DNA of 64,000 bases. Source: Siphonodentalium dalli (lineage: Eukaryota; Mollusca; Scaphopoda; Gadilida; Siphonodentaliidae). Location: the NCBI GenBank assembly GCA_032622095.1, contig CP136069.1, positions 103,816,278-103,880,277 on the forward strand, in the 5' to 3' direction. The notes beneath the pieces were generated by a model. The model was given only the letters and a program-made list of their open reading frames with translations. It searched no databases and was not told the DNA's origin. The first letter of the stretch is position 1; each line of letters starts with the position of its first letter. Made by a program: the position numbers and the translations under genes. Positions 3,125 through 28,602 of this stretch are shown here, in pieces.

Positions 3125-3238
3125 ATCACAGGTCCCCAGAACAAAAATTGACCCCACCCAATAGTACTTAATCCTATAGATCTATAGGATTAAGTACTAT
3201 TGGTTGTGGGGTCAATTTTTGTTCTGGGGACCTGTGAT
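3125..3238. mobile_element. 114-bp near-perfect hairpin MITE
   Basis: ATCACAGGTCCCCAGAAC at 3125 is mirrored by GTTCTGGGGACCTGTGAT ending at 3238. The two halves pair along almost their whole length, with one 2-base bulge (CACCCAAT against ATTGGTTGTG). The centre is TATAGATCTATA. ATAA stands on both sides (3121-3124 and 3239-3242), which could be a short target duplication. There is no coding capacity. Confidence 0.75.
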
Positions 3239-3353
3239 ATAAATGTGTCGTCTATGTCCATTTACTTATGTAACGTCACAGTGACGCGTCATGGGCATTG
3301 AAGCGGATGGAACAGACTGAATGCAATCAGGATAGACAGGTCCGCTCTGCGCA

Positions 3354-3359
3354 TGCGTT
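3354..3359 (+). repeat. Left 6-bp target-site duplication (TGCGTT) of the giant palindrome
   Basis: TGCGTT lies immediately outside the first base of the palindrome and recurs in direct orientation immediately outside the last base, at 20160-20165. If it were simply more palindrome it would appear inverted as AACGCA, and it does not. Confidence 0.85.
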
Positions 3360-3365
3360 AGTAGT

Positions 3366-4306
3366 ATAGAAAGCGTTGTACCTCCCCCATTCTACCAGTA
3401 CCAGGGTCGATGCATGACCTTGACACGGTCCAATTCTACTAGTACCAGGTCGATGGTTGACCTTAATACTGTATGTAGGTCGCCCTATTTACCCCAGGTA
3501 TCTAGGTCGCCCTATTTACCCCCCCCCCCCCGTATGAATCTAGTAGTACAAATGGTCGATGACCGAGATAAGCTAATGGTATGTAGGTCGCTATATGATA
3601 GATGTCGCCCTATTTACCGTCCCGTATGAATCTAGTAGTACAAATGGTCGATGACCGAGATAAGCTAATGGTATGTAGGTCGCTATATGATGGATATACC
3701 AGCTAATATGGTCGATGACCGACTATCATATACTCGAGTTTCATACGGTATGTAGGTCGCTATATTATAGAGTAATTTATGCGGGTGTGTGAGGAATATT
3801 ATCTGAGGAGGGGGCCCTATTACAAACACGGTTAGTAGGTCGCCCGAATTAGATGTGGTAAGTAGGTCGCTATATTATGCAGTATTATGTTAATGGATCT
3901 ACCAGCTAATATGGTCGATGAGCGACTATTATATACACGAGTTTCTTGTGGTATGTAGGTCGGTGTATTATGCAGTATTTAGAGCGGGTTAATGGATCTA
4001 CCAGATAATACGGTCGATGACCTACTGACAGATATAATACGTACTAGTACGGTATGCAGGTCGCTGCATCATCTACCAGATAATATGGTCGATGAGATAT
4101 ACTCGAGTTTCGTAGGGTATGTAGGTCGCTGTACGTTTTTAGACTCGGTTATTGGGTCTACGAGATAATATGGTCGATGACCGACTATCACATATACTCG
4201 GGAGTTTCGTAGGGTATGTAGGTCGCTGCAGCAGCTACCAGATAATATGGTCGATGACCTACTTATCGATATACATACTCCAATTTCGTACGGTATGTAG
4301 ATCGCT
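3366..4306 (+). repeat. Subterminal repeat block A (left arm)
   Basis: This is an array of loosely spaced direct repeats. Recurring words are GTATGTAGGTCGC, GGATCTACCAGCTAATATGG and TGGTCGATGACC. The TGGTCGATGA core occurs about ten times at intervals of roughly 40-200 bp (near 3411, 3451, 3552, 3642, 3708, 3914, 4011, 4088, 4172, 4249). Such arrays at the ends of DNA transposons commonly bind the mobilising protein, but that role is inferred here. A short poly-C run interrupts the block near 3520. Confidence 0.8.
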
Positions 4307-4315
4307 GTGTGGGGG

Positions 4316-4323
4316 TATTTAAA
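4316..4323 (+). promoter_or_regulatory. Possible TATA box of the left zinc-ribbon gene
   Basis: TATTTAAA lies about 100 bases upstream of the ATG at 4424, just after the subterminal block ends. In the right arm the matching site reads TATCAAAA, so the box is intact only on the left. Function is inferred from position and composition. Confidence 0.35.
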
Positions 4324-4423
4324 GCAGATAATTTTCTTTCCCTACCACTATATTTTTTCTCCTACATCTTCAAGGGTGTTATACAATATATTCTCTTTTG
4401 TTGTGTCAAAGTCTGCTGTCAAA

Positions 4424-5023
4424 ATGCCAAAAGCTACCGAGAAGACCGTAAAGAAAACGCAAGCTCCATCTAAGGATAGTGAACAACCTATTTTACAACT
4501 TTCACTCACATAATTATTCAACCTCGAGAAGACAAACTTTCAGAATATTGAAAGAAGGATTAGTGTTGGACAGATACCTGTGAAGATAGTGTATACTATC
4601 GTGTCAAGAGAGTTGAGAGAATTCGACGACAAGGACACTGATGGTGGAAAGATTGAACTGTACAAACTCACACTCAAAAGAGAATTTCAAAAGTCACTGG
4701 AAACCATCAGTGTGATTATCCCAAAACGCTACCAACACCCATGCTCAACTGCTACTCACCTAGTGAATCTTGGAAAGCTGACGACCAAAAATGGTCGTTC
4801 AATGAACAACTTATTGTTTTATAGTTCTAATGATTCCACCGAGGAGCAACCTCAAATGCAATTCTGTGCAACAAATGGCCATTGTGCCACGTCAAGTTCA
4901 TTTGATATGTACTGTTCTTTGTGTGGTGAACAACAACACGACTGGCAACATCCAGACGAAGATGGACAAATTCAATTCTGCATTGTATGTGGTTTGGAAA
5001 TCAAATCTCTCACTTATGCCTGA
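4424..5023 (+). pseudogene. Zinc-ribbon-like protein gene, left copy, one internal stop
   Basis: The reading frame runs 199 codons from an ATG in good context (GTCAAAATGCC) to TGA. It is broken only by TAA at 4511-4513 (codon 30), where the right-arm copy has GAA. The start is basic and rich in K, T and P (MPKATEKTVKKTQ). A central segment of mixed charge contains RRISVGQIPVKIVY and LYKLTLKREF. The C-terminal ~50 residues hold paired cysteines (YCSLCGEQ and FCIVCGLE, plus FCATNGHC), which look like a zinc ribbon or knuckle. I do not recognise the family. A stopless frame around the single nonsense codon suggests the gene was intact recently. It lies between two direct copies of the element's end repeat, so it may encode something acting on those repeats, but this is inference. 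Confidence 0.65.
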
Positions 5024-5058
5024 AGTACAAATCTAAAGAACAGCATAGCTAGATATAT

Positions 5059-5256
5059 ATGAGCTTCATATTCGAAGAACACTGGAACTATATGTTGTTA
5101 TATATGTTATGTTTACTGATCTCCTTTCTTAACGAGGTAACGGATCAAATATTAATATTACACTTATGTGTTGTTGTTTTTTTTCTTTATATCCTATATG
5201 TAAGTATGGTAAAAAATATGGTATATGTTAAGATATCCTTATTCCCAATCCCGTGA
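5059..5256 (+). other. Small hydrophobic open frame (65 codons), left arm
   Basis: This frame lies 36 bases after the zinc-ribbon frame. It predicts two hydrophobic stretches (MLLYMLCLLISFL and ILILHLCVVVFFLYILYV) that could span a membrane. The sequence is AT-rich and may simply be the 3' untranslated region. The right-arm copy encodes the same peptide, but the arms are near-identical anyway, so this is not evidence of selection. Confidence 0.2.
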
Positions 5257-5334
5257 TATATTTGTCAGTGCTCATACCCATTGATTGCTGTAAATGATTA
5301 CAAATTCTATAAATATTGAATATTTTATTACTAA

Positions 5335-5968
5335 TATCGCTATATGATGGATCTACCAGCTAGTATGGTCGATGACCGAATATCCTATTTACCCCAGGTA
5401 TCTAGGTCGCCCTATTTACCCACGTATGAATCTAGTAGTACAAATGGTCGATGAACGAGATAAGCTAATGGTATGTAGGTCGCTATATGATGGATCTACC
5501 AGCTAGTATAAGCTGAAGGTATGTAGGTAGCTATATGATGGATCTACCAGCTAATATGGTCGATGACCGAATATTATATACTCGAGTTCCATACGGTATG
5601 CAGGTCGCTATATTATAGAGTAATTTATGCGCGTGTGTGTGAGGAATATTATCTGAGTAGAGGGGGGGGGCTATTACAAACGCTGTTAGTAGGTCGCCCG
5701 AATTAGATGCGTTAAGTATATGTCGCTATATTATGCAGTATTATGTTAAATGGATCTACCAGCTAATATGGTCGATGAGCGACTATTATATACACGAGTT
5801 TCATATGGTAGCTATGTCGCTGTATTATGCAGTATTTATAGCGGGTTAATGGATCTACCAGATAATATGGTCGATGACCTAACTGTCAGATATAATACGT
5901 ACTAGTACGGTATCCAGGTCGCTGCAGCATCTACCAGATAATATGGTCTATGACAGTCTACTATCGGG
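5335..5968 (+). repeat. Subterminal repeat block B (left arm), direct copy of block A
   Basis: The block repeats the content and order of 3460-4100 in the same orientation. In order it has the CCCTATTTACCC words, GTATGAATCTAGTAGTACAA, the TTATGCG...GTGAGGAATATTATCTGAG segment with a following G run, then ACGTACTAGTACGGTAT. The zinc-ribbon gene is therefore bracketed by two direct copies of the end block in each arm. Confidence 0.8.
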
Positions 5969-6150
5969 ACAGTCGTAATGTGGTGTGACCATCTGCTCAA
6001 CGACCTACACGTTACACGATACAGTTACGGTTGTTTTGTCTATTCTGGCGAATAACAAAGAGCGTTCTTATTATATACGCTCGTAACTATTGTGTATTGT
6101 AATACTACATTCGAATTGCTTGAACATTGAAAACAGTATATTCGTTAGTC
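5969..6150 (+). repeat. Direct repeat unit 1 inside left arm
   Basis: This unit (CAGTCGTAATG, GACCTACACGTTACACGAT, TTTTGTCTATTCTGG, TTGCTTGAACATTGAAAACAG) recurs in the same order at 7203-7370. A shortened version lies near 6490-6570. The matching right-arm copies lie at about 17370-17550 and 16140-16320. No coding content is seen. Confidence 0.6.
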
Positions 6151-6575
6151 ATCGAGCCACTGATGGTGTGACCAAATAGTCACTGTTTAAACGACAATGA
6201 CTGTAAAATGACGGAACACATGTGGGACAAAAGATGAGTCACGGGATGTACCGTGTGTATAATTCAAAAGAAATGTGAAAAATACCTAATTTCCGCCTGA
6301 AATACTATTCAATTTGTCCAAATTGTACGGAAAATATAGCAAATTTGCTTGATATTGTCTAAATTTTGAGTTTTCGTAACGTTTTGGGTTGGAAGACACC
6401 GTAAAACGACTACCTATACACTTTCCAAAATACGAATATGAGATCATACCTGTTATATTCCAACAGTTGACAAAAAGTGCAAATGGTGGATTATAACAAA
6501 GAGCAGTTATGGTTGTGTTGTCTATTTCTGGATAATAAAAAAGAGTTTTTTTATCATATACACACGAGCCTATTA

Positions 6576-7112
6576 TATATATTAAAGATGGATTATCTCT
6601 TTAAATAACAAATTTTAAATAGTTGCGTGGGTATAAAATAATAGATATGAACTGAAGACCCCTGTCCGGAAAAGCTTCTATCAATTAATATTGTTTTTAT
6701 TTCGAATATTAAATCGGGAGCGTTTGTGTTACTATTTTTAGAACAGACCATTCGGATGATACCATATTGCGATATAGAGCACTGGTCTGTTCCTATGGCT
6801 ACGCACTGAAAGTCAAATATCCCAGATTGATTGTTTGTATTGTATTGTTCCACAGATATAAGCGATAATGAGTATAATTAACGTTTGTTTGTGACAAAAT
6901 TGTACAATAAAATTTCTGGTCTCTGTTAACAGTAACCACTATTGTTCGTTAGCTGAACAAACACACCTTTTTAGACCAGAAAATATTCGAAATAAAATTA
7001 ATATTAATCGATAGAAGCATTTCCGGACAGGATTTTCGATTCAAATCTAATATATTATACCCCGGTAACTATATAATACATGTTTACAAAGAGATAATCC
7101 ACCTTTAATATT
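6576..7112. mobile_element. Nested inverted-repeat element in left arm (~535 bp)
   Basis: TTAAAGATGGATTATCTCTT at 6583 and the following ~135 bases (GTATAAAATAATAGAT, CCTGTCCGGAAAAGCTTCTA, TTTCGAATATT) are mirrored at 6980-7107, ending AAGAGATAATCCACCTTTAA. The ends are TTAATATTAAAG-like. This is probably a MITE inserted before the palindrome formed, since the right arm has it at 16416-16950. Confidence 0.65.
6593..6853 (-). other. Open frame of unknown status inside nested element
   Basis: An 86-codon frame overlaps the nested fold-back; its right-arm version is 16664-16936. It shows no recognisable domain or signal peptide. It runs through the inverted-repeat arm, so it is more likely a chance frame of the element than a gene. 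Confidence 0.15.
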
Positions 7113-7202
7113 AAATTCAATCGCTTGAACATTGAACTCAGAATATCCGTTTGTTTTCGAGTCCCAGATAGTGTGTGAATGCCGTATGTTTTAATGTGCA
7201 AT

Positions 7203-7410
7203 TGGGACAGTCGTGTTGGGATATGACCCTCGACTCAAAGACCTAAGTGTTACAAGATGCAGTTATGGTCGTTTTGTCGATGTCTGTATAATTATAAAGA
7301 GCTTATACCTACTGTGTATTGTAATATTACATTTTAATTGCTTGAACATTGAAAACAGAATATCCGGCAGTCGTAATGGGATATGACCTTCGGCTCATAG
7401 ACATATATGT
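7203..7410 (+). repeat. Direct repeat unit 2 inside left arm
   Basis: This is the second copy of the unit at 5969-6150, with GGGACAGTCGT, TGTTACAAGATGCAGTTATGG and TTGCTTGAACATTGAAAACAG. A third partial start (CAGTCGTAATGGGATATGAC) follows at 7370-7410. The two units flank the fold-back at 6576-7112. Confidence 0.6.
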
Positions 7411-7724
7411 TACACGGGTAGTGCAAATATTAAGTAGTATACATATAACATGGCGCTGTCAAAGAAACGTTATGATGTATCGTATGTTGTAGGAAGTGTA
7501 TCTTCTATATCAGGGCCACTATAAATACTCCTTTCTTGGCACGATCCACTCACTCAATGGTATCGTATAAATTAAGCAAAAAACACAAACTGAGACACAC
7601 CCCGTCTTATTTTGGCATATACTGCCCGTGATTTTCCCAAAGACGAATGCGAACTTTCCACTCGCTTTCGAATCTACTGACCTATCACTCCCTAGATGTT
7701 TGACGATTTGTACACCTTTCATAT

Positions 7725-7958
7725 TCAAAAATAGATTCGTGTCGCTCTCGGTCTGACGAGACTACAATGTTCGGGTCTCAATAAAAAAAAAAAAACAGCC
7801 ATATGCCCGACAGGTGTCATAAAACACCGCTCCGTGTTAGTCCATTGTTGATATAGTATAAATAAAGAGCGTTTGTTGCACCTGTACGCAGAAAATTGAA
7901 ACAGCTGAGAAAATGAATGTGACCATGGGTTGTATTGTTCAAGAGAATACAAAGACAT
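7725..7958 (-). other. Open frame of unknown status
   Basis: A 77-codon frame with no recognised domain; its mirror copy is 15572-15805. It crosses a poly-A/poly-T run (about 7783-7795) that would be unstable in a coding gene. A TATAAATAAA word lies inside it on the opposite strand. It is listed only because it is shared by both arms. Confidence 0.15.
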
Positions 7959-8611
7959 TATATGAATAGTTAGTATATTTTAAACCAATATTAAACCTCA
8001 CTCCAAATTAAGTTGACATAATATGGAAGCTCGAATGGACCATTAAAATTGATAAGCATGTGATACATCCAATTCGTGTGAGAATGTCGAGTTAGTGCAC
8101 TGACGTGTGGACGTTGGTGTTAATGGACCTGATACATTATGGAGACAACCTTCACGTCAAATACGATGTGCAAAACTCGATCATTAATATTAAAAATCAG
8201 TGATGTTTGAATTGAAAATAGTACCCCTTGCGATGTATTTAATATGTACATCTTTGGAGTGTATTCAATATTATTTTCGACAACCTATTAGTAACCTATA
8301 TCGCAAAAAAAAAATATGGTCAATGTCATATGTGTAAATTTGAATCAATGACGAATGTTATACACGATATAATGAGGTCAGTAAATACGACAGTGTTCGT
8401 TATGTTGTGTATTATGCGTACCGCCATAGTGCCGGTTGTAATAAGATATTGCGAGTTTGTTATTGAGAGGTGGTTTTAATTACAACTAAAGCTGTGTATA
8501 CTGTGTATATGTATACTGGTTAACTCACACTGATCTATTTTCGTTTAAATATCGAGCGTGCTGACTATTCGCTCCATTTCGTGTAATATTATTAGTATAC
8601 TTTAGTAAACG

Positions 8612-9102
8612 ATGGAATCTAAATCCTACAGGAACTATCTCGGGAATAGGGGTCGTTTTTTAAACGTTTGTATGTTCAAATCTGAAGCTAGAATAGATGT
8701 TCGCTGTTGGGTGAAAAATGGGTCATACCCCACGAAAACTGGAACGTCTATGAGTCTGGCGCGTTGGTTGAATCTTTTTTATTATTTTGAAATGATTCAA
8801 GAGGCCATCGATGATGGCATAGATTTACACAAACAACATATATGTGGCAATTTGCACGTTAGTTGTGACACAAGGTACTCGGTTATACACATAAGGACAT
8901 ATTTTGTTCCAGGAAGGGGCTGTCAATCTGATACCTACACGGAAGGGGGGTCACATTGAACCATTCAGAATGGAAAGATATGGTGGAGTGTAGAGCGAAG
9001 GTAGAGGAACTTTACCCAGAGCTAAAAACGTGGACTCCATGTGTTTATGCCGAGAATGCTCACCTTCAACCTACAAGGAATACTTATAAATTGGACACAT
9101 AA
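8612..9102 (+). pseudogene. PC4/p15-like single-strand DNA-binding protein gene, left copy, frame broken
   Basis: The first ~66 codons match the pattern of the PC4 (transcriptional coactivator p15) C-terminal domain. That pattern is GRFLNVCMFKSEARIDVR, a glycine turn, then the PTKTG motif and a helix starting SLARWLNL. From about residue 80 a second similar module begins (NLHVSCDTRYSVIHIR). It continues past residue 103 only if the frame shifts twice, first in the run near 8911-8919 and again in the six-G run near 8943-8948. After that, PTRKG and then LNHSEW resume the pattern and end at TAA 9100-9102. PC4-family proteins bind single-stranded or melted DNA in the nucleus. Without the shifts the frame stops at 8959. 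Both arms share the two breaks, so they predate the palindrome or its last homogenisation, unless they mark introns or programmed shifts. Confidence 0.65.
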
Positions 9103-10090
9103 CACTCATGACATATAATTTACACCGATCGTTGTAAATGGATATAACAGCCGTAAGAATATTTTGATATGTATCTGTTTTTGATTATACAGATAGAAGA
9201 TTAACTATATCATTGTTGAGTATGCTATTCATTAAATTATTTATATTTCCACGTGGATTACTTTTTAAGGCTCTATAATTCATTTCATATTATGATTCTG
9301 TGCCTAAAAAATACCTTTTACTTCAAATGCAGCAACAAATCTGAGAGGCAGTGAGTGTACTCGACTCAGATTTATTATTTATCATCTGAGATGTATTACA
9401 CCGCCGCGTATTTGCAATATAACCTGCATTTAGGTGTAGTCTTCCCTTTGGTATGTATTTCAAAATGTTACTTTGAAATATAGTCTATTTTAAGGCTATA
9501 TACAATTTTATCTCTTAATACGTTTAAGAAGGATACATGATATCGATATATAGTAAACGTAAATGTATTTGCAGATTGAATAAATGTTCTATATCGCTTT
9601 AAATACGGTATGTATACCCTATAATGCTATATTAATTGTTTCAAACAAATGTGTGTTATTACCCTATATTGCTATATTAATTGTTTCAAACAAATGTGCG
9701 TTATTGCCGATGAGTATGTGTCTCATACAACCCATATTCTATTGTGCCCGGTAATGAAACGAGGTATGTTATTTGTGAAATCGAAGGTTATATAGTGTTA
9801 ACCCGTGGATACACTAGGCAGGTCGTATATTTTTCACATGGAGGTCTACTAACCACCTATAGATGGTAAGTGAAATTTGAGGAAATATGCCAGACTTATA
9901 CATAAGCAATTACCTTATTTACATATATACTTCAATAGTTATAAATGATTAACGTCAACATCTATACAATCTGGTTAAAAGAATCAATTCTCATCATGTT
10001 TGGGAGAAATACAGGGAGCCAGGTATAAATCCGAGTTATTTCCTTCGACATAAGTGAACATTTTGAGTACTACTCTTCATAGAACGTTAG
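9103..10090. other. AT-rich left-arm stretch without genes
   Basis: No coding frame of note. It contains a tandem 45-bp pair at 9616-9705 (ACCCTATAATGCTATATTAA then ACCCTATATTGCTATATTAA) and a small inverted pair (CTGAGAGGCAGTGAGTG against the following ACTCAGATTTATTATTTATC). The right-arm equivalent is about 12730-13711. Confidence 0.6.
9616..9705 (+). repeat. 45-bp direct tandem pair
   Basis: Two adjacent units share GCTATATTAATTGTTTCAAA and CAAATGTG, differing at a few bases. The mirror pair lies at about 13110-13199 in the right arm. Confidence 0.8.
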
Positions 10091-11276
10091 AAAACCATAA
10101 TCTAACAACGAATATCGAAGAAACAATGTGATTTCTTGATACAAATTTGAATTATTCTGTCTATTTTGAATAATATTGGTAGAAAAAATGATTTTTTTTC
10201 AATGAGAGTTGGGACAAAAACTCACATTTTGAGATAAAAATGTATCGTTTGTATCATAGTCTTATAAAAACGAAGACTTAATACGAACCTATTCGGTATA
10301 TTGAGTGAATGTTTTAGAAAGAATATCGAAGAACCAATGTAATTACTTGATAAGCATTGTAACTATTCGTCTGTTTAAAAAAAAAAATGGAAATATTTCG
10401 TCTATTTGGAATACAGTTGGTAGCAATATTCAAGTATTTAAATGAAATTTGGACCAAAAAACTTATAATTTGAGAAAACGTGTACCATTTCTAATGTGTC
10501 TAATGTGTGAATGTGTTCATATATAGCAAATATAATGATGCAGAAATGAATATTTCCTAGAAAAAATGTTAACATAGCTTGTATTGAACCAATATAATGT
10601 AGCATTCGAGTTAAAATATTTCATATTTGGACCATAACGAACCAATGCAAAAGATAGGGGGACATATTTTGCGCATAAAAATACAGGGTTGTCAATTATC
10701 AACAAAAAAACAAATACTTTGAAACAACAAAAAAGATGACATAAGAACGAATATCCAAAAGCTAGTGTGAAAATAACCCTCACATTTATAAAAATAAAAC
10801 AATAAAAATTCAGTTTTCGAGTAAATCCTTTAAAATTATTGAATGTTTTCGTCTATGTAGGATAAAATTTGACACAAAAATCAATTAGCTCACTAACAGT
10901 TCGCGCAATATCTCAGGTTTTGAGAAAACGTTTGCAATTTGAGACAACAATATTGCTAGTGAAGGTGAAAATTTCGTCCTGGAACTGATGAAATATGATA
11001 AAAATAGATGTAAAGACACTTCCTGGGCCCTCATGTCTATGAGTTATGAACATAATGTCATCTCATAGTGCCTTTGTACCCCATAATTTGGTCACGAGAA
11101 ATGTGTATTTCATTTTTGACCCTTCATGTGTGATAACAATCAATGAAATTACAGCCCATGGTATCCTAAAACATGAAGGAACATCATAAGTGGAGTCAGT
11201 TTTGCCAATTTAGGTAACATTGTTGCCAGGGAAGTTCTACATTTCTTGTTGGAACTGAAGAAATGTGATGAAAATT
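10091..11276. repeat. Diverged ~205-235-bp tandem repeats, inner left arm
   Basis: Recurring words show a degenerate series of direct repeats. AATATCGAAGAA lies at about 10111 and 10322, TTTGGACCAAAAAAC-type and TTGAGAAAACG-type segments recur to about 10930, and AAATGTGATGAAAATTGA-type tracts follow. A TATGGGGTAC-containing unit lies near the centre (read on the other strand). Homopolymer runs of A and T are frequent. No gene is seen. Confidence 0.55.
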
Positions 11277-11502
11277 GATCAATTATCACTTGATGGGCCC
11301 TCGTGGCTTTCAATTTCAATTTCCCTGGCAAGAATGTTGCCTAAAATTCCAAAATTGAGTCAATTTATGCTCTGGGTTAATATCTAGGGCACCACTAACA
11401 TGGCCCTTAATTCATCTTTTTGCCACAGATAAATGGTTAAATATCCAATTCACTCTCCTCCTGATCAGATTATGGGGTACAATGAGACTATCAGATGCCT
11501 TT
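11277..11502. other. Central asymmetric spacer of the giant palindrome (226 bp)
   Basis: Arm pairing ends at 11276 and resumes at 11503 with no complementarity between. The spacer is related to the flanking repeat units: CCCTGGCAAGAATGTTGCC resembles CCCTGGCAACAATGTTACC at 11550, and GATTATGGGGTACAA resembles AAATTATGGGGTACAA at 11690. It is therefore one further diverged unit of the same tandem series, present once. Confidence 0.8.
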
Positions 11503-12730
11503 AATTTTCATCACATTTCTTCAGTTCCAACAAGAAATGTAGAACTTCCCTGGCAACAATGTTACCTAAATTGGCAAAACTAACTCCACTTATGATGTTC
11601 CTTCATGTTTTAGGATACCATGGGCTGTAATTTCATTGATTGTTATCACACATGAAGGGTCAAAAATGAAATACACATTTCTCGTGACCAAATTATGGGG
11701 TACAAAGGCACTATGAGATGACATTATGTTCATAACTCATAGACATGAGGGCCCAGGAAGTGTCTTTACATCTATTTTTATCATATTTCATGAGTTCCAG
11801 GACGAAATTTTCACCTTCACTAGCAATATTGTTGTCTAAAATTGCAAACGTTTTCTCAAAACCTGAGATATTGCGCGAACTGTTAGTGAGCTAATTGATT
11901 TTTGTGTCAAATTTTATCCAACATAGACGAAAACATTCAATAATTTTAAAGGATTTACTCGAAAACTGAATTTTTATTGTTTTATTTTTATAAATGTGAG
12001 GGTTATTTTCACACTAGCTTTTGGATATTCGTTCTTATGTCATCTTTTTTGTTGTTTCAAAGTATTTGTTTTTTTGTTGATAATTGACAACCCTGCATTA
12101 TTTTGATCGAGAATGAAAAACAAAATATTGTATTTTTATGCGCAAAATATGTCCCCCTATCTTTTGCATTGGTTCGTTATGGTCCAAATATGAAATATTT
12201 TAACTCGAATGCTACATTATATTGGTTCAATACAAGCTATGTTAACATTTTTTCTAGGAAATATTCATTTCTGCATCATTATATTTGCTATATATGAACA
12301 CATTCACACATTAGACACATTAGAAATGGTACACGTTTTCTCAAATTATAAGTTTTTTGGTCCAAATTTCATTTAAATACTTGAATATTGCTTCCAACTG
12401 TATTCCAAATAGACGAAATATTTCTATTTTTTTTTTAAACAGACGAATAGTTACAATGCTTATCAAGTAATTACATTGGTTCTTCGATATTCTTTCTAAA
12501 ACATTCACTCAATATACCGAATAGGTTCGTATTAAGTCTTCGTTTTTATAAGACTATGATACAAACGATACATTTTTATCTCAAAATGTGAGTTTTTGTC
12601 CCAACTCTCATTGAAAAAAAATCATTTTTTCTACCAATATTATTCAAAATAGACAGAATAATTCAAATTTGTATCAAGAAATCACATTGTTTCTTCGATA
12701 TTCGTTGTTAGATTATGGTTTTCTAACGTT
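11503..12730. repeat. Diverged ~205-235-bp tandem repeats, inner right arm
   Basis: This is the mirror of 10091-11276. It has a right-arm-only segment of about 35 bases near 12090-12125 (between CAACCCT and GTATTTTTATGCGC) that the left arm lacks. Confidence 0.55.
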
Positions 12731-13711
12731 CTATGAAGAGTAGTACTCAAAATGTTCACTTATGTCGAAGGAAATAACTCGGATTTATACCTGGCTCCCT
12801 GTATTTCTCCCAAACATGATGAGAATTGATTCTTTTAACCAGATTGTATAGATGTTGACGTTAATCATTTATAACTATTGAAGTATATATGTAAATAAGG
12901 TAATTCCTTATGTATAAGTCTGGCATATTTCCTCAAATTTCACTTACCATCTATAGGTGGTTAGTAGACCTCCATGTGAAAAATATACGACCTGCCTAGT
13001 GTATCCACGGGTTAACACTATATAACCTTCGATTTCACAAATAACATACCTCGTTTCATTACCGGGCACAATAGAATATGGGTTGTATGAGACACATACT
13101 CATCGGCAATAACGCACATTTGTTTGAAACAATTAATATAGCATTATAGGGTAATAACACACATTTGTTTGAAACAATTAATATAGCATTATAGGGTATA
13201 CATACCGTATTTAAAGCGATATAGAACATTTATTCAATCTGCAAATACATTTACGTTTACTATATATCGATATCATGTATCCTTCTTAAAAGTATTAAGA
13301 GATAAAATTGTATATAGCCTTAAAATAGACTATATTTCAAAGTAACATTTTGAAATACATACCAAAGGGAAGACTACACCTAAATGCAGGTTATATTGCA
13401 AATACGCGGCGGTGTAATACATATCAGATGATAAATAATAAATCTGAGTCGAGTACACTCACTGCCTCTCAGATTTGTTGCTGCATTTGAAGTAAAAAGG
13501 TATTTTTTAGGCACAGAATCATAATATGAAATGAATTATAGAGCCTTAAAAAGTAATCCACGTGGAAATATAAATAATTTAATGATTAGCATACTCAACA
13601 ATGATATAGTTAATCTTCTATCTGTATAATCAAAAACAGATACATATCAAAATATTCTTACGGCTGTTATATCTATTTACAACGATCGGTGTAAATTATA
13701 TGTCATGAGTG
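12731..13711. other. AT-rich right-arm stretch without genes
   Basis: This is the mirror of 9103-10090. It contains the 45-bp pair at about 13110-13199 and no coding frame. Confidence 0.6.
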
Positions 13712-14918
13712 TTATGTGTCCAATTTATAAGTATTCCTTGTAGGTTGAAGGTGAGCATTCTCGGCATAAACACATGGAGTCCACGTTTTTAGCTCTGGGT
13801 AAAGTTCCTCTACCTTCGCTCTACACTCCACCATATCTTTCCATTCTGAATGGTTCAATGTGACCCCCCTTCCGTGTAGGTATCAGATTGACAGCCCCTT
13901 CCTGGAACAAAATATGTCCTTATGTGCAGTGTTCGCGCTGTCGGTAGCCAAATTAGCCAATGGCTAATATTATTCGAATTTGGCTAATATAAATTTCATT
14001 TGGCTAAACTTTTTTTTACATGGAGTTGTAAAGCTAATTAATAAAAGCGCTGAATAGATCGAAGTTATGTGACGAAAGTATTTCGTACTTATGTTAATAC
14101 GCCGTCGATGACATTTAACCAGCCTAATCGTCAAAACGCTTAAGCTGTATTCTGGTTATGTAACTGATTAAGCCGTCTGTAAGATAAAATACCTAAATGC
14201 TTTGTTCAGAAGAGCAGTTCTTAATCAATGGTTGCGTAATCTGAATCCCGTTTAATAAACTGGCTTCTCGTCATAAAAGTGTCAACGACATAGAGTTATT
14301 ACAATTAATTAGCTTAGCGAATTTATGCGGGCTTTTGCAATGTGAAATCCCGCCGTATTCTATAGTAATGTTTTATGAATTGATCTGCTTGTGTGATATA
14401 ATACATACATATGTTCGTATAATATTGTTTTTAAATTTGTTTTTGTGTTGTTTTAATTATGTTTTTATACTGAATAACAAATAAAGTTTAAAGCGAATAT
14501 TTTAGTCATTAATTGTGAACCTCCCAGAAAATGAGGATTTAATTTGGCAAAAAAACATTTGGCTAAAGTTTTTTTCATTTGGCTAATAAAATTTTCATTT
14601 GGCTAACATATTTTTCGGTCCAGCGCGAACACTGCTTATGTGTATAACCGAGTACCTTGTGTCACAACTAACGTGCAAATTGCCACATATATGTTGTTTG
14701 TGTAAATCTATGCCATCATCGATGGCCTCTTGAATCATTTCAAAATAATAAAAAAGATTCAACCAACGCGCCAGACTCATAGACGTTCCAGTTTTCGTGG
14801 GGTATGACCCATTTTTCACCCAACAGCGAACATCTATTCTAGCTTCAGATTTGAACATACAAACGTTTAAAAAACGACCCCTATTCCCGAGATAGTTCCT
14901 GTAGGATTTAGATTCCAT
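13712..14918 (-). pseudogene. PC4/p15-like gene, right copy, split by a hAT-type MITE
   Basis: This is the mirror copy of 8612-9102, starting at the complement of the ATG at 14918. It carries the same two G-run frame breaks. In addition a 708-bp insertion (13927-14634) interrupts the second PC4-like module just after the RYSVIHI codons. Translation from the start would run into the MITE and end at 14595. This copy is certainly non-functional as a two-module protein. Confidence 0.7.
13927..14634. mobile_element. 708-bp hAT-type MITE
   Basis: The ends are the perfect 14-bp inverted repeat CAGTGTTCGCGCTG, flanked by the 8-bp direct duplication CTTATGTG (13919-13926 and 14635-14642). An 8-bp duplication with CAGTG-type tips is the hallmark of the hAT superfamily. 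Subterminal regions repeat the word TTTGGCTAA several times at both ends. There is no transposase frame, so it is non-autonomous. The left arm retains the single uninterrupted site (CACATAAG, 8888-8895). Confidence 0.9.
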
Positions 14919-16415
14919 CGTTTACTAAAGTATACTAATAATATTACACGAAATGGAGCGAATAGTCAGCACGCTCGATATTTAAACGAAAATAGATCAG
15001 TGTGAGTTAACCAGTATACATATACACAGTATACACAGCTTTAGTTGTAATTAAAACCACCTCTCAATAACAAACTCGCAATATCTTATTACAACCGGCA
15101 CTATGGCGGTACGCATAATACACAACATAACGAACACTGTCGTATTTACTGACCTCATTATATCGTGTATAACATTCGTCATTGATTCAAATTTACACAT
15201 ATGACATTGACCATATTTTTTTTTTGCGATATAGGTTACTAATAGGTTGTCGAAAATAATATTGAATACACTCCAAAGATGTACATATTAAATACATCGC
15301 AAGGGGTACTATTTTCAATTCAAACATCACTGATTTTTAATATTAATGATCGAGTTTTGCACATCGTATTTGACGTGAAGGTTGTCTCCATAATGTATCA
15401 GGTCCATTAACCCCAACGTCCACACGTCAGTGCACTAACTCGACATTCTCACACGAATTGGATGTATCACATGCTTATCAATTTTAATGGTCCATTCGAG
15501 CTTCCATATTATGTCAACTTAATTTGGAGTGAGGTTTAATATTGGTTTAAAATATACTAACTATTCATATAATGTCTTTGTATTCTCTTGAACAATACAA
15601 CCCATGGTCACATTCATTTTCTCAGCTGTTTCAATTTTCTGCGTACAGGTGCAACAAACGCTCTTTATTTATACTATATCAACAATGGACTAACACGGAG
15701 CGGTGTTTTATGACACCTGTCGGGCATATGGCTGTTTTTTTTTTTTTATTGAGACCCGAACATTGTAGTCTCGTCAGACCGAGAGCGACACGAATCTATT
15801 TTTGAATATGAAAGGTGTACAAAACGTCAAACATCTAGGGAGTGATAGGTCAGTAGATTCGAAAGCGAATGGAAAGTTCGCATTCGTCTTTGGGAAAATC
15901 ACGGGCAGTATATGCCAAAATAAGACGGGTGTGTCTCAGTTTGTGTTTTTTGCTTAATTTATACGATACCATTGAGTGAGTGGATCGTGCCAAGAAAGGA
16001 GTATTTATAGTGGCCCTGATATAGAAGATACACTTCCTACAACATACGATACATCATAACGTTTCTTTGACAGCGCCATGTTATATGTATACTACTTAAT
16101 ATTTGCACTACCCGTGTAACATATATGTCTATGAGCCGAAGGTCATATCCCATTACGACTGCCGGATATTCTGTTTTCAATGTTCAAGCAATTAAAATGT
16201 AATATTACAATACACAGTAGGTATAAGCTCTTTATAATTATACAGACATCGACAAAACGACCATAACTGCATCGTGTAACACTTAGGTCTTTGAGTCGAG
16301 GGTCATATCCCAACACGACTGTCCCAATTGCACATTAAAACATACGGCATTCACACACTATCTGGGACTCGAAAACAAACGGATATTCTGAGTTCAATGT
16401 TCAAGCGATTGAATT

Positions 16416-16950
16416 TAATATTAAAGGTGGATTATCTCTTTGTAAACATGTATTATATAGTTACCGGGGTATAATATATTAGATTTGAATCGAAAATCCT
16501 GTCCGGAAATGCTTCTATCGATTAATATTAATTTTATTTCGAATATTTTCTGGTCTAAAAAGGTGTGTTTGTTCAGCTAACGAACAATAGTGGTTACTGT
16601 TAACAGAGACCAGAAATTTTATTGTACAATTTTGTCACAAACAAACGTTAATTATACTCATTATTGCTTATATCTGTGGAACAATACAATACAAACAATC
16701 AATCTGGGATATTTGACTTTCAGTGCGTAGCCATAGGAACAGACCAGTGCTCTATATCGCAATATGGTATCATCCGAATGGTCTGTTCTAAAAATAGTAA
16801 CACAAACGCTCCCGATTTAATATTCGAAATAAAAACAATATTAATTGATAGAAGCTTTTCAGGACAGGGGTCTTCAGTTCATATCTATTATTTTATACCC
16901 ACGCAACTATTTAAAATTTGTTATTTAAAGAGATAATCCATCTTTAATAT
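16416..16950. mobile_element. Nested inverted-repeat element in right arm (~535 bp)
   Basis: This is the mirror copy of 6576-7112, with GGTGGATTATCTCTT at the start and AAGAGATAATCCATC at the end. Its presence in both arms places its insertion before the inverted duplication. Confidence 0.65.
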
Positions 16951-17552
16951 ATATAATAGGCACGTGTGTATATGATAAAAAAACTCTTTTTTATTATCCA
17001 GAAATAGACAACACAACCATAACTGCTCTTTGTTATAATCCACCATTTGCACTTTTTGTCAACTGTTGGAATATAACAGGTATGATCTCATATTCGTATT
17101 TTGGAAAGTGTATAGGTAGTCGTTTTACGGTGTCTTCCAACCCAAAACGTTACGAAAACTCAAAATTTAGACAATATCAAGCAAATTTGCTATATTTTCC
17201 GTACAATTTGGACAAATTGAATAGTATTTCAGGCGGAAATTAGGTATTTTTCACATTTCTTTTGAATTATACACACGGTACATCCCGTGACTCATCTTTT
17301 GTCCCACATGTGTTCCGTCATTTTACAGTCATTGTCGTTTAAACAGTGACTATTTGGTCACACCATCAGTGGCTCGATGACTAACGAATATACTGTTTTC
17401 AATGTTCAAGCAATTCGAATGTAGTATTACAATACACAATAGTTACGAGCGTATATAATAAGAACGCTCTTTGTTATTCGCCAGAATAGACAAAACAACC
17501 GTAACTGTATCGTGTAACGTGTAGGTCGTTGAGCAGATGGTCACACCACACC

Positions 17553-18190
17553 GATAGTAGACTGTCATAGACCATATTATCTGGTAGATGCTGCAGCGAC
17601 CTGGATACCGTACTAGTACGTATTATATCTGACAGTTAGGTCATCGACCATATTATCCGGTAGATCCATTAACCCGCTATAAATACTGCATAATACAGCG
17701 ACATAGATACCATATGAAACTCGTGTATATAATAGTCGCTCATCGACCATATTAGCTGGTAGATCCATTTAACATAATACTGCATAATATAGCGACATAT
17801 ACTTAACGCATCTAATTCGGGCGACCTACTAACAGCGTTTGTAATAGCCCCCCCCCCCCCCTCCCTACTCAGATAATATTCCTCACACACACGCGCATAA
17901 ATTACTCTATAATATAGCGACCTGCATACCGTATGGAACTCGAGTATATAATATTCGGTCATCGACCATATTAGCTGGTAGATCCATCATATAGCTACCT
18001 ACATACCTTCAGCTTATACTAGCTGGTAGATCCATCATATAGCGACCTACATACCATTAGCTTATCTCGTTCATCGACCATTTGTACTACTAGATTCATA
18101 CGTGGGTAAATAGGGCGACCTAGATACCTGGGGTAAATAGGATATTCGGTCATCGACCATACTAGCTGGTAGATCCATCATATAGCGATA
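17553..18190 (-). repeat. Subterminal repeat block B (right arm)
   Basis: This is the reverse-complement counterpart of 5335-5968. It contains ATTAGCTGGTAGATCCAT and GGTCATCGACCATATTA words and a poly-C run at about 17850-17861 opposite the left-arm poly-G. Confidence 0.8.
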
Positions 18191-18268
18191 TTAGTAATAA
18201 AATATTCAATATTTATAGAATTTGTAATCATTTACAGCAATCAATGGGTATGAGCACTGACAAATATA

Positions 18269-18466
18269 TCACGGGATTGGGAATAAGGATATCTTAACAT
18301 ATACCATATTTTTTACCATACTTACATATAGGATATAAAGAAAAAAAACAACAACACATAAGTGTAATATTAATATTTGATCCGTTACCTCGTTAAGAAA
18401 GGAGATCAGTAAACATAACATATATAACAACATATAGTTCCAGTGTTCTTCGAATATGAAGCTCAT
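18269..18466 (-). other. Small hydrophobic open frame (65 codons), right arm
   Basis: This is the mirror copy of 5059-5256 and predicts the same peptide. It has the same doubts: probably untranslated AT-rich sequence downstream of the zinc-ribbon frame. Confidence 0.2.
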
Positions 18467-18501
18467 ATATATCTAGCTATGCTGTTCTTTAGATTTGTAC
18501 T

Positions 18502-19101
18502 TCAGGCATAAGTGAGAGATTTGATTTCCAAACCACATACAATGCAGAATTGAATTTGTCCATCTTCGTCTGGATGTTGCCAGTCGTGTTGTTGTTCACC
18601 ACACAAAGAACAGTACATATCAAATGAACTTGACGTGGCACAATGGCCATTTGTTGCACAGAATTGCATTTGAGGTTGCTCCTCGGTGGAATCATTAGAA
18701 CTATAAAATAATTAGTTGTTCATTGAACGACCATTTTTGGTCGTCAGCTTTCCAAGATTCACTAGGTGAGTAGCAGTTGAGCATGGGTGTTGGTAGCGTT
18801 TTGGGATAATCACGCTGATGGTTTCCAGTGACTTTTGAAATTCTCTTTTGAGTGTGAGTTTGTACAGTTCAATCTTTCCACCATCAGTGTCCTTGTCGTC
18901 GAATTATCTCAACTCTCTTGACACGATAGTATAGACTATCTTCACAGGTATCTGTCCAACACTAATCCTTCTTTCAATATTCTGAAAGTTTGTCTTCTCG
19001 AGGTTGAATAATTCTGTGAGTGAAAGTTGTAAAATAGGTTGTTCACTATCCTTAGATGGAGCTTGCGTTTTCTTTACGGTCTTCTCGGTAGCTTTTGGCA
19101 T
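18502..19101 (-). pseudogene. Zinc-ribbon-like protein gene, right copy, two private stops
   Basis: This is the same 600-base frame as 4424-5023 on the other arm (paired coordinates sum to 23525). It keeps GAA at the codon that is a stop on the left. It carries its own TAA codons at 18906-18904 (GAA on the left) and 18714-18712 (TTA on the left). The cysteine-rich C-terminus is preserved in the frame. The leader differs slightly (GTCAATATG) and the TATA-like site upstream is changed. With different lesions in each arm, neither copy makes the full protein unless stops are read through. The lesions postdate the duplication or its last homogenisation. Confidence 0.65.
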
Positions 19102-19218
19102 ATTGACAGCAGACTTTGACACAACAAAAGAGAATATATTGTATAACACCCTTGAAGATGTAGGAGAAAAAATATAGTGGTAGTGAAAGAAAATTATCTG
19201 ATTTTGATACCCCCACAC

Positions 19219-20153
19219 AGCGATCTACATACCGTACGAAATTGGAGTATGTATATCGATAAGTAGGTCATCGACCATATTATCTGGTAGCTGCTGCAGC
19301 GACCGACATACCCTACGAAACTTCCGAGTATATCTGATAGTCGGTCATCGACCATATTATCTGGTAGACCCAATAACCGAGTCTAAAAACGTACAGCGAC
19401 CTACATACCCTACGAAACTCGAGTATATCTCATCGACCATATTATCTGGTAGATGCTGCAGCGACCTGCATACCGTACTAGTACGTATTATATCTGTCAG
19501 TAGGTCATCGACCGTATTATCTGGTAGATCCATTAACCCGCTCTAAATACTGCATAATACACCGACCTACATACCACAAGAAACTCGTGTATATAATAGT
19601 CGCTCATCGACCATATTAGCTGGTAGATCCATTAACATAATACTGCATAATATAGCGACCTACTTACCACATCTAATTCGGGCGACCTACTAACCGTGTT
19701 TGTAATAGGACCCCCTTCATCAGATAATATTCCTCACACACCCGCATAAATTACTCTATAATATACCGACCTACATACCGTATGAAACTCGAGTATATCA
19801 TACTCGGTCATCGACCATATTAGCTGGTATATCCATCATACAACGACATACATACCATTAGCTTATCTCGGTCATCGACCATTTGTACTACTAGATTCAT
19901 ACGGGACGGTAAATAGGGCGACATCCATCATATAGCGACCTACATACCATTAGCTTATCTCGGTCATCGACCATTTGTACTACTAGATTCATACGGGGGT
20001 TAAATAGGGCGACCTAGATACCTGGGGTAAATAGGGCGACCTACATACAGTATTAAGGTCAACCATCGACCTGGTACTAGTAGAATTGGACCGTGTCAAG
20101 GTCATGCATCGACCCTGGTACTGGTAGAATGGGGGAGGTACAACGCTTTCTAT
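19219..20153 (-). repeat. Subterminal repeat block A (right arm)
   Basis: This is the reverse-complement counterpart of 3366-4306, with the same series of GGTCATCGACC cores and CGACCTACATACC words running up to the right terminus. Confidence 0.8.
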
Positions 20154-20159
20154 ACTACT

Positions 20160-20165
20160 TGCGTT
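20160..20165 (+). repeat. Right 6-bp target-site duplication (TGCGTT) of the giant palindrome
   Basis: This is the direct copy of the left TGCGTT, abutting the terminal CTATACTACT. Arm homology stops exactly at this base pair. Confidence 0.85.
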
Positions 20166-20172
20166 CCTATAT

Positions 20173-20456
20173 ACTCGGAATTATGTATCACTTGTCTGGG
20201 GTCTCACTGAACTCGGAATTAGGTATCACTTGTCTCGGGTATCACTGAACTCGGAATTAGGTATCACTTGTCTCGGGTATCACTGAACTCGGAATTAGGT
20301 ATCACTTGTCTCGGCTATCACTGAAATCGGAATTATGCATCACTTGTCTCGGGTATCACTGAACTCGGAATTAGGTACCCCTTGTCTCGGGTATCACTGA
20401 ACTCGGAATTAGGTATCACTTGTCCCGGGTAGTATTTGACTCGGGTATCATTTGTT
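20173..20456 (+). repeat. 38-bp tandem array, about 7 copies
   Basis: The unit starts ACTCGGAATTAGGTATCACT and continues TGTCTCGGGTATCACTGA; the step is 38 bases. The last unit decays to GGGTAGTATTTGACTCGGG. The array begins only 8 bases beyond the right TGCGTT of the giant palindrome and is absent on the left flank. Confidence 0.9.
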
Positions 20457-27800: not shown

Positions 27801-28602
27801 CACTAAATACTCAAACTATACGAAATTTCCTTCAAAATTGGTCAATTTTTACATACCATCCCCCAGGATATATGTAGGTGGTCAACCGAGGGTCAACTGG
27901 TCCGGGTTTTCTGAAAGGTGGGTAGGAATGGTGATTATGTGGGCATAAAGCGACAGCTTGTGCCACTGAATACTCAAACTATACGAAATTTCCTTCAAAA
28001 TTGGTCGATTTTTACGTACCATCCCCCCAGGGTATCTGTAGGTGGTCAACCGAGGGTCAACTGGTCCGGGTTTTCTGTAAGGCGGGTTGTAATGGTGATT
28101 ATGTGGGCATAAAGCTACAGCTTGTGCCACTAATTACTCAAACTATACGAAATTTCTTTCAAAATTGTTCGATTTTTACGTACCATCCCCCCAGGATATA
28201 TGTAGGTGGTCAGCCGATGTTCAACTGGTCCGTGTTTTCTGTAACACGGGTAGGAATGGTGCTTATGTGGGCATAAAGCGACAGCTTGTGCCACTAAATA
28301 CTCAAACTATACGAAATTTCCTTCAAAATTGGTCGATTTTTACGTACCATCCCCCCAGGATATCTGTAGGTGGTCAACCGAGGGTAAACTGGTCCTGTTT
28401 TTCTGTAAGGCGGGTAGGAATGGTGATTATGTGGGCATAAAGTGACAGCTTGTGCCACTAAATACTCAAACTATACGAAATTTCCTTCAAAATTGGTCGA
28501 TTTTTACGTACCATCCCCCCGGATATCTGTAGGTGGTCAACCGAGGGTCAACTGGTCCGGGTATTCTGAAAGGCGGGTAGGAATTGTGATTATGTGGGCA
28601 TA
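24835..28602 (+). repeat. 164-bp satellite, block 1 (about 23 monomers)
   Basis: The monomer starts GCATAAAGCGACAGCTTGTG, passes ACTCAAACTATACGAAATTT, a C run after GTACCAT, then GGTGGTCAACCGAGGGTCAA, and ends GGAATGGTGATTATGTGG. Spacing is 164 bases with small indels. Monomers differ from one another by a few percent to about 10 percent by eye. Open frames here are satellite frames. Confidence 0.97.
28601..28602 (+). repeat. Left TA target duplication of the 11.8-kb insertion
   Basis: The satellite monomer reads GGGCA-TA-AAGCGAC. Here it is split after TA, and the other half resumes with TA at 40442-40443. Confidence 0.8.

What the first reader, a model, noticed from the sequence alone, without database searches (positions are those of the whole stretch)
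3354..20165. 16.8-kb element that is almost entirely one palindrome, with a 6-bp target duplication
Seen: arms pair from exactly 3360 to 20159, and the next 6 bases on both sides are TGCGTT in direct, not inverted, orientation. Known: 6-bp duplications, AG tips and long inverted repeats are features of Polinton/Maverick elements; foldback elements also have very long inverted ends. Inference: the palindrome moved or integrated as a unit, perhaps as an inverted dimer produced by hairpin or snap-back replication of a linear DNA. None of the Polinton core genes is present, so it could be a non-autonomous relative or a new class.
Basis: partly seen in the sequence, partly recalled or inferred. Interest (0 to 1): 0.9.

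Follow-up and report, generated by a model that had tools for sequence, protein, structure and literature searches.

The report
Palindromic element with Polinton-type ends
A 16.8-kb mobile element that is almost entirely one mirror image, with the ends and target-site footprint of virus-like Polinton transposons but none of their core genes found; its better-preserved sister copies in the same genome are mirror images too, and the two halves seem to be made identical again each time the element moves.

Summary
It is neither an assembly artefact nor a one-off dimer. The same unnamed 2.23-Gb genome holds a family: 9 copies with both tips, i.e. 7 independent insertions, 7 of 7 with a perfect 6-bp duplication. 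One (copy A) has a 234/234 empty site 1.1 kb away. The better-preserved copies are palindromes.

The tips (AGTAGT) match the published Maverick/Polinton (AGT)2 motif. Old copies carry a PC4 gene matching, at 28%, a gene of a Polinton amplified in this genome. No core Polinton gene was found, so the element is probably mobilised in trans.

Within a copy the arms differ by 0.3-0.8% (about 3% in the oldest), but copies differ by 1-3% (7% and more). Centre junctions are shared between independent insertions, and two duplicated insertions show arms drifting apart afterwards. So the palindrome is inherited, yet its arms are made equal again at each transposition, though the window's outer 1.3 kb is an exception. 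I infer replication through a self-complementary panhandle/hairpin. A second palindromic element and a third long-armed locus carry the same gene, ORF1. Helper and mechanism are inferred, not shown.

The parts
3354..3359 (+). left copy of the 6-bp target duplication TGCGTT
20160..20165 (+). right copy of the 6-bp target duplication TGCGTT
3360..11276 (+). left arm of the palindrome (7,917 bp), tip AGTAGTATAGAAAGCG
11277..11502 (.). unpaired central loop, 226 bp; itself a diverged inverted copy (about 66%) of the inner arm end; shared with copies A, D and (other strand) E
11503..20159 (-). right arm of the palindrome, ending in the same tip
3484..4260 (+). outer block of degenerate subterminal repeats (GGTATGTAGGTCGCT / GGTCGATGACC type); mirrored near 19266-20035
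   Evidence: sequence
5338..5953 (+). second block of the same repeats on the inner side of ORF1 (5508-5953 about 91% to 3660-4095); mirrored at about 17565-18188
4424..5023 (+). ORF1, 199 codons, Cys/His-rich C-terminus, no Pfam family; broken here by a stop at codon 30 (also seen in copy I); open in some other copies
18502..19101 (-). ORF1 of the right arm, broken by stops at codons 66 (also in both arms of copy D) and 130
8612..9099 (+). PC4-domain gene, left arm: first domain PF02229 E=5.7e-5; frame shifted at a G run before the second part; old copy H reads the whole match in one frame
13715..14918 (-). PC4-domain gene of the right arm, interrupted by the one-sided insert
13927..14634 (.). 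708-bp insert present in the right arm only, tips CAGTGTTCGCGCTG, 8-bp duplication CTTATGTG on both sides (hAT-like by recall); entered after the palindrome formed

Best explanation
It is a non-autonomous element with Polinton/Maverick-type ends whose genome is a palindrome, one member of a small family, probably mobilised in trans by the host genome's many Polintons. Shown: the ends, the 6-bp duplications, an empty site (copy A), palindromic sister copies, a PC4 gene shared with a local Polinton, centre junctions shared between insertions, arms more alike within a copy than between copies, and arms drifting apart after insertion. Inferred: integration by a Polinton integrase, and TP-primed, PolB-type strand-displacement replication. 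The displaced strand would be self-complementary and would fold into a panhandle/hairpin of about 8 kb. There the arms would template or repair each other, so a new insertion starts with (nearly) identical arms while the loop, which has no partner, is passed on. Palindromes of this sort may first have arisen as snap-back (defective-genome-like) derivatives of a Polinton end.
For: Ends: AGTAGT at both tips of W, A-H and at the single tips of I and K; the commonest vertebrate Maverick motif is (AGT)2//(ACT)2, with 6-bp duplications (passages of PMC8097293). 7 of 7 insertions with both tips have perfect 6-bp duplications. Empty site: joined flanks of copy A match 234/234 at C1:274724611-274724844, with 12 further near full-length unoccupied paralogues at 81-94%. 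Palindromy. Arms: p-distance W 0.78, A 0.40, B 0.31, C 0.29, D 0.58, E 0.38% within copies against 0.85-3.3% between the seven younger insertions W, A, B/C, D, E, F, I; inner-arm maximum-likelihood tree unites L+R with support W 97, A 95, B/C 100, D 100, E 100; G/H arms also fall together. No continuing homogenisation: the duplicated insertion B/C gives L-L 0.09, R-R 0.11, L-R 0.31% and G/H gives 1.1, 1.5 and 2.6-3.5%. Inherited centres: W, A and D share both loop junctions and E has the loop on the other strand; B/C and I share another centre. Helpers: open pPolB frames of about 952 and 1,312 aa; integrase and ATPase-like genes in the two sampled elements. PC4: residues 43-204 of the 218-aa Polinton PC4 protein match copy H in both arms without a stop, 28%, E=2e-14 and 5e-14. 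Copy D carries the same stop in ORF1 of both arms, so a copy without working ORF1 could still move, as expected of trans-mobilised DNA.
Against: No autonomous element sharing the arm DNA was found: the P1 and P2 copies read have no nucleotide match to the arms (one weak 58-bp match, E=7e-4, lies outside P2), and ORF1 matches none of 657 ORFs of 50 aa or more from 11 loci. Only the flanks of one P1 and one P2 copy were read. In the window's copy the outer 1.3 kb of the arms is mosaic: 8 sites join one arm to another copy against its partner, the W arms are not sisters in the outer tree, and their ORF1 stops are shared with different copies, left with I and right with D. So equalisation is not always complete. 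The window's own PC4 match is weak (26% over 69 aa, E=4.5e-5), tblastn of the P1 PC4 protein does not reach the window's arm at E<=0.01, and its second part matches nothing relevant. No replication intermediate or terminal protein was observed.
Confidence: 0.62

Rival explanations
1. Each insertion formed its palindrome afresh: a one-armed master element snaps back during replication, as in AAV snap-back genomes or (recalled) adenovirus incomplete-particle genomes, and the inverted dimer integrates.
For: Explains arms identical at birth and sisterhood of L and R. AAV snap-back genomes are documented (passages of PMC8235507). The centres fall into at least three types.
Against: W, A and D share exactly the same two loop junctions, E has the same loop, and B/C and I share a second centre although they are independent insertions. 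No one-armed master was recognised among the 16 places fetched besides the window (one search lists 46 match rows, several per place); I, J and K are single-ended and look truncated or undetermined.
Confidence: 0.2
2. The palindrome is inherited and arm identity is kept by gene conversion between the arms while they sit in the chromosome, as in mammalian Y palindromes (recalled).
For: In the window's copy the inner arm (22 of about 6,440) is far more alike than the outer arm (26 of 1,456); arms of copy B are identical over the inner 1,293 bp.
Against: In two insertions that were later duplicated (B/C, G/H) left arms group with left and right with right, and L-R distances exceed L-L and R-R. 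One-sided inserts and deletions persist.
Confidence: 0.1
3. A cut-and-paste foldback element of another superfamily with very long inverted repeats (IS3EU/GingerRoot, Dada, a Mutator-like foldback, Galileo/P) that only resembles Polintons at the tips.
For: Long internally repetitive inverted repeats are the hallmark of foldback elements; IS3EU also makes 6-bp duplications (passages of PMC10045372). No transposase or core Polinton gene was found.
Against: IS3EU ends are TA..TA, Ginger makes 4-5 bp duplications. Neither fits AGTAGT with 6 bp. The PC4 gene is shared with a Polinton of the same genome. A P2 Polinton here also starts AGTAGTAT with a 6-bp duplication.
Confidence: 0.13
4. Assembly artefact (hairpin read, uncorrected foldback) or chance inverted repeat.
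For: Long palindromes are a common artefact class (recalled).
Against: Different flanks, exact tips with 6-bp duplications, a one-sided insert with its own duplication, palindromic copies elsewhere in the genome and an empty site for one of them.
Confidence: 0.01

Closest known systems
Polinton/Maverick transposons (vertebrate set in PMC8097293; P1 and P2 of this genome)
   Same: 6-bp target duplications, trinucleotide-repeat tips (AGT)2, terminal inverted repeats, similar total size, a PC4 gene shared with P1
   Different: Published intact vertebrate elements have terminal repeats of 46-1,447 bp; here about 94% of the element is inverted repeat. No pPolB, integrase, ATPase, protease or capsid gene was found.
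AAV 5'/3' snap-back genomes (PMC8235507)
   Same: Self-complementary genome made from one end of a parent, symmetric or with a loop, replicating with helper functions
   Different: Parvoviral; not known to integrate with a fixed duplication (recalled). Here the palindrome is an inherited, multi-copy chromosomal family.
Palindromic genomes of incomplete adenovirus particles and palindromic derivatives of yeast linear killer plasmids (both recalled, not read)
   Same: Protein-primed linear DNA producing inverted dimers of one end
   Different: Transient deletion forms, not an inherited family with its own conserved gene.
Foldback elements (Drosophila FB, Galileo; Mutator/foldback Tm1; seen only as search listings)
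   Same: Very long, internally repetitive inverted repeats
   Different: Other duplication lengths (9 or 7 bp, recalled), no Polinton tips or genes, arms not reported to be equal at birth (recalled).

Membership tests
Polinton/Maverick | 6-bp target site duplication | tested here: met
   7 of 7 independent insertions with both tips are perfect; empty site for copy A
Polinton/Maverick | AG-type repeated end motif, (AGT)2 or (AG)3 | tested here: met
   AGTAGT in copies W and A-I plus K; J is cut at the tip; motif from passages of PMC8097293
Polinton/Maverick | terminal inverted repeats | tested here: met
   7.9-kb arms, far beyond the published vertebrate range
Polinton/Maverick | protein-primed DNA polymerase B, integrase, packaging ATPase, capsid proteins, protease | tested here: not met
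   No stop-to-stop ORF above 169 aa inside the element; 8 further left-arm ORFs give no Pfam core domain; no tblastn hit of 20 P1/P2 ORFs of 130 aa or more to the arm at E<=0.01. The polymerase domains themselves were not among those queries, so a decayed pPolB is excluded only by ORF length.
Polinton/Maverick | gene content shared with Polintons of the same genome | tested here: met
   PC4: P1 protein PF02229 E=5.6e-15 in two stretches; it matches both arms of copy H at 28%, E=2e-14 and 5e-14, no stop; the window copy only weakly and not by tblastn at E<=0.01
Polinton/Maverick | 5' terminal protein and protein-primed replication | not testable with these tools
   needs extrachromosomal DNA
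IS3EU/GingerRoot | 6-bp duplications with TA..TA (GingerRoot occasionally TG..CA) termini and an IS3-type transposase | tested here: not met
   tips AGTAGT; definition from passages of PMC10045372
Ginger1/Ginger2 | 4-5 bp duplications, TGTNR tips | tested here: not met
   6 bp and AGTAGT; definition from passages of PMC2836005
Foldback (FB/Galileo/Mutator type) | 7-9 bp duplications (recalled) with long repetitive inverted repeats | tested here: not met
   duplication length is 6 in 7 of 7

The most novel reading that the evidence does not exclude
A class of satellite elements of Polintons with self-complementary genomes: an inherited palindrome whose replicative form is a single-stranded hairpin of about 8 kb, so that one arm rewrites the other every cycle (arms behave like LTRs, identical at birth). 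The class would carry its own conserved gene, ORF1, found here in this family, in a second palindromic element (42% identical protein) and at a third long-armed locus, and would exploit Polinton replication and integration in trans.
Probability: 0.5. Interest if true: 0.9.

Novelty: new variant of a known kind. Interest (0 to 1): 0.82.

Why it matters
Polintons are thought to replicate by protein priming, but to my recall this has hardly been observed. A palindromic satellite whose arms are nearly identical at each birth leaves a readable trace of that replication in the chromosome, and it gives every insertion a built-in clock, as LTRs do. It would extend defective-interfering, snap-back biology from viruses to chromosomal virus-like transposons, and it shows that long palindromes can be inherited as mobile units. 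In the held library no paper contained the phrases non-autonomous (or nonautonomous) Polinton or Maverick (its 3 hits were for 'Polinton-derived'), and the one hit for palindromic Polinton, Maverick, transposon and similar phrases was unrelated. A wider word search for Polinton, Maverick, palindromic, hairpin and protein-primed showed no title or abstract start on such an element among the 20 listed of 82.

Tried and rejected
Chance or artefact: rejected. A single inverted dimer peculiar to this locus: rejected. In-place arm conversion as the main cause of identity: disfavoured. A loop flip in copy E: dropped, because the strand on which a palindromic element is read is arbitrary. Stops in ORF1 private to each window arm: my first reading, dropped, because codon 30 is also stopped in I and codon 66 in both arms of D. 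Database homologues: none for the PC4 piece or the ORF1 piece in the 5.8-billion protein set, none for the PC4 piece in viral contigs; the 16-base tip hits 3 viral contigs, where only the 16-mer and chance-level pieces match. ORF1 structure: one AlphaFold2 model from a single sequence, mean pLDDT 42, not interpreted. ORF1 codon test: pooled pN/pS 0.25 over 15 non-independent pairs of copies, but 0.22 also within copies (6 synonymous, 5 non-synonymous, nonsense excluded), where neutrality was expected; third-position excess 11 of 24, p=0.14. So constraint rests mainly on the 42% identity with the second family. Rows dropped: F, G and H from the codon test; G, H, J and K; F, I and C, which also left out G, H, J, K. 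G_R and H_L are badly aligned in the 4.5-kb tree, so G and H were judged on the outer 930 bp.
Full report
WHAT IS THERE. The arms pair from 3360/20159 inward to 11276/11503, leaving a 226-bp loop and one 708-bp insert in the right arm only, so about 94% of the 16,800 bp is inverted repeat. The two flanks show no similarity beyond TGCGTT. The right-arm insert has inverted tips CAGTGTTCGCGCTG and its own 8-bp duplication; calling it hAT-like is recall. It dates to after the palindrome. Between the arms there are 48 substitutions and 9 gaps over 7,897 aligned bases.

GENES. No stop-to-stop ORF inside the element exceeds 169 aa. Two genes are recognisable, each present in both arms. ORF1 (199 codons) lies about 1.06 kb inside each tip between two blocks of degenerate repeats. 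In the window the left copy has a stop at codon 30 (also in copy I) and the right copy at codons 66 (also in both arms of copy D) and 130. Of 13 arms with ORF1 sequence, 5 (A left and right, B right, C right, E right) are open over the full 199 codons. No Pfam family matches it. The second gene encodes a PC4-like domain (PF02229, E=5.7e-5, just below Pfam's own cut-off), shifted in frame at a G run that has six G in W, A, D, E, F and I, five in G/H, and a 6-base deletion in B/C. Eight other left-arm ORFs give no core-gene domain; two weak hits at E=0.028 were ignored.

THE FAMILY. The window lies at C9:103816278-103880277 of an unnamed 2.23-Gb genome in 9 contigs; I take it to be a eukaryote from its size, satellites and lack of long ORFs. 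The first 341 bases of the element give 46 match rows, a lower bound. I fetched 11 places and 5 weaker ones. Nine copies (window, A-H) have both tips. B and C share both flanks, as do G and H, so these are 7 insertions; all 7 have a perfect 6-bp duplication: TGCGTT, GCTGTG, GATGTT, CTGATA, GAAGGG, ATCTAC, AGCGTG. I, J and K show one end only. Copies A, B, C, D, E and H are palindromic over most of their length. F has lost nearly all of one arm, and G has outer arms plus a tandem-repeat-filled middle. Copy A sits in a repeat; its joined flanks, with a single GCTGTG, occur uninterrupted at 234/234 identity 1.1 kb downstream and near full length at 81-94% in 12 further places. So the unit that integrates is exactly tip to tip.

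ARMS ARE EQUAL AT BIRTH. On the outer 4.5 kb of 18 arms, L and R of one copy differ by 0.29-0.78% (W, A, B, C, D, E) while the seven younger insertions (W, A, B/C, D, E, F, I) differ from each other by 0.85-3.3%; G/H lie further out. An inner-arm maximum-likelihood tree unites L and R of W, A, B/C, D and E with support 95-100. In site patterns over 10 arms, 28, 38, 27, 6 and 2 sites unite L+R of E, D, B, A and W; sites that join one arm to another copy number 2 in E, 8 in W and none in A, B, D. All 8 in W lie at arm positions 319-1260, where the two W arms also fail to group and where their ORF1 stops are shared with different copies: the window's own copy is mosaic in its outer 1.3 kb, and this is the main blemish. 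Two insertions duplicated afterwards (B/C 2.2 Mb apart, G/H 3.7 Mb apart; either segmental duplication or uncollapsed haplotypes) give left-with-left and right-with-right groupings, with L-R distances above L-L and R-R; in the short outer trees the B/C part of this is weakly supported, in the inner tree it is 90 and 98. So arms drift apart after insertion and are not being homogenised in place.

THE CENTRE IS INHERITED. W, A and D have identical junctions arm 7917 | loop 1-226 | arm 7917'. E has the same loop read on the other strand, and its right arm is deleted from 5064 to the loop. D's right arm lacks 6950-7815. B/C and I, independent insertions, share another centre (7730|7905', partly obscured in B/C by a deletion), and G/H have an extended one. 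So the palindrome is passed on as a palindrome, its centre erodes by one-sided deletions, and yet the arms are made equal again between insertions. A cycle through a self-complementary single strand would do this naturally: the arms are in duplex and can be repaired or copied against each other, whereas the loop has no partner. Copy D, stopped at the same ORF1 codon in both arms, suggests that ORF1 is not needed in cis.

POLINTON LINK. Intact vertebrate Mavericks most commonly end in (AGT)2//(ACT)2, with 6-bp duplications and terminal repeats of 46-1,447 bp (passages of PMC8097293). The palindromic family starts AGTAGT. The same genome is rich in Polintons: 149 pPolB matches from 69 scored of 1,596 candidates, nearly all in open frames, mostly of about 952 or 1,312 aa. 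One copy of each type was examined by its flanks. P1 (C1, about 16.5 kb) has 1.2-kb terminal repeats, tip AGAAGAATAGG and duplication CATATA (my reading of the ends printed), an integrase with chromodomain, a weak AAA-type ATPase match, a PC4 protein with two PF02229 stretches (E=5.6e-15) and next to it a TATA-binding protein (E=3.9e-32). P2 (C1, about 14.3 kb) has tip AGTAGTATTAAG, duplication GAGCTG, integrase and an adenovirus IVa2-like ATPase. Residues 43-204 of the P1 PC4 protein, which I take to span both domains, match both arms of old copy H without a stop, 28%, E=2e-14 and 5e-14 against the fetched DNA, and G in two pieces. The window's first domain matches at 26% over 69 aa, and tblastn does not reach the window's arm at E<=0.01. 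P1-type PC4 gave 150 scored matches of 94-100% (716 candidates). So potential helpers are present and apparently recently amplified. But the copies read of P1 and P2 share no DNA with the arms, so the actual helper is not identified.

MORE PALINDROMIC FAMILIES. Searching the genome with ORF1 gave 45 matches, including diverged ones in inverted pairs. C3:146005771-146013296 is a 7.5-kb element with AGTAGT tips, a 5-of-6 duplication (TATACA/GATACA), arms paired over about 73% of its length at 93-98% around a loop of about 1.1 kb with a 0.8-kb insert, and ORF1 homologues in both arms; its protein is 42% identical to ORF1 over 163 aa. C9:105447500-105464154 has arms of at least 3.6 kb at 99.3-99.4%, tips not reached, interior not read. 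ORF1 thus marks a wider class. Low-identity single ORF1 matches could lie in autonomous elements; I could not read them.

MECHANISM AND CONFIDENCE. Integration by a Polinton-type integrase in trans: likely (about 0.8). Inherited palindrome with arms re-equalised at each cycle: about 0.7. Panhandle/hairpin intermediate of protein-primed replication as the cause: about 0.45, inferred from the adenovirus panhandle (recalled) and from AAV snap-back genomes (passages of PMC8235507). The repeated trinucleotide tip also fits the jumping-back initiation of protein-primed polymerases (recalled). Papers: PMC8097293, PMC8235507, PMC10045372, PMC2836005 and PMC6431247 were seen as passages only; others only as search listings.

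Noticed in passing
L039:1217-2406 (P1 Polinton, C1:205525616-205526805): An amplified Polinton carries overlapping genes for a PC4 protein with two PF02229 stretches and a TATA-binding protein, an unusual pair of transcription factors for a Polinton; word searches for PC4 with Polinton (no paper) and for Maverick, PC4, TATA-binding protein, transposon (2 unrelated papers) found nothing on it.
   Followed up: partly
L014-L017, L023-L026: Copies B/C (2.2 Mb apart on C5, both 300-bp flanks 100% identical) and G/H (3.7 Mb apart on C1) are duplicates of single insertions: recent segmental duplications or uncollapsed haplotypes in the assembly.
   Followed up: partly
L030:6170-7212: Near the single-ended copy K (tip at L030:9700) lie two stretches about 81% identical to P2 Polinton DNA; it could be a chimeric element or a nested fragment.
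   Followed up: no
L031 and L032 (C3:270541369, C3:268221899): A related element, duplicated 2.3 Mb apart, starts AGTAGTAGAGTAGGGA and shares about 80 bp of tip (78%) with the family; no right end was recognised within the 20 kb (L031, L036) or 10 kb (L032) read.
   Followed up: partly
L038:7284-9086 and L040:8587-9999: A separate 601-aa ORF of P1 is related (21%, E=6e-17) to the start of what appears to be the long pPolB frame of P2, so the two Polinton families seem to differ by a fusion at the polymerase.
   Followed up: no
window 20173-20431: A 38-bp tandem array (6.8 copies) begins 8 bp beyond the right target duplication.
   Followed up: no
window 24836-28602 and 40442-64000: Large arrays of a satellite of about 164 bp with higher-order variants of 85, 330 and 494 bp fill much of the window.
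   Followed up: no
window 3125-3241: A near-perfect hairpin of 117 bp overall lies about 110 bp left of the insertion.
   Followed up: no
window 3360-11276: Substitutions between the arms show no transition excess (16 transitions, 32 transversions), unusual for a nuclear genome.
   Followed up: no
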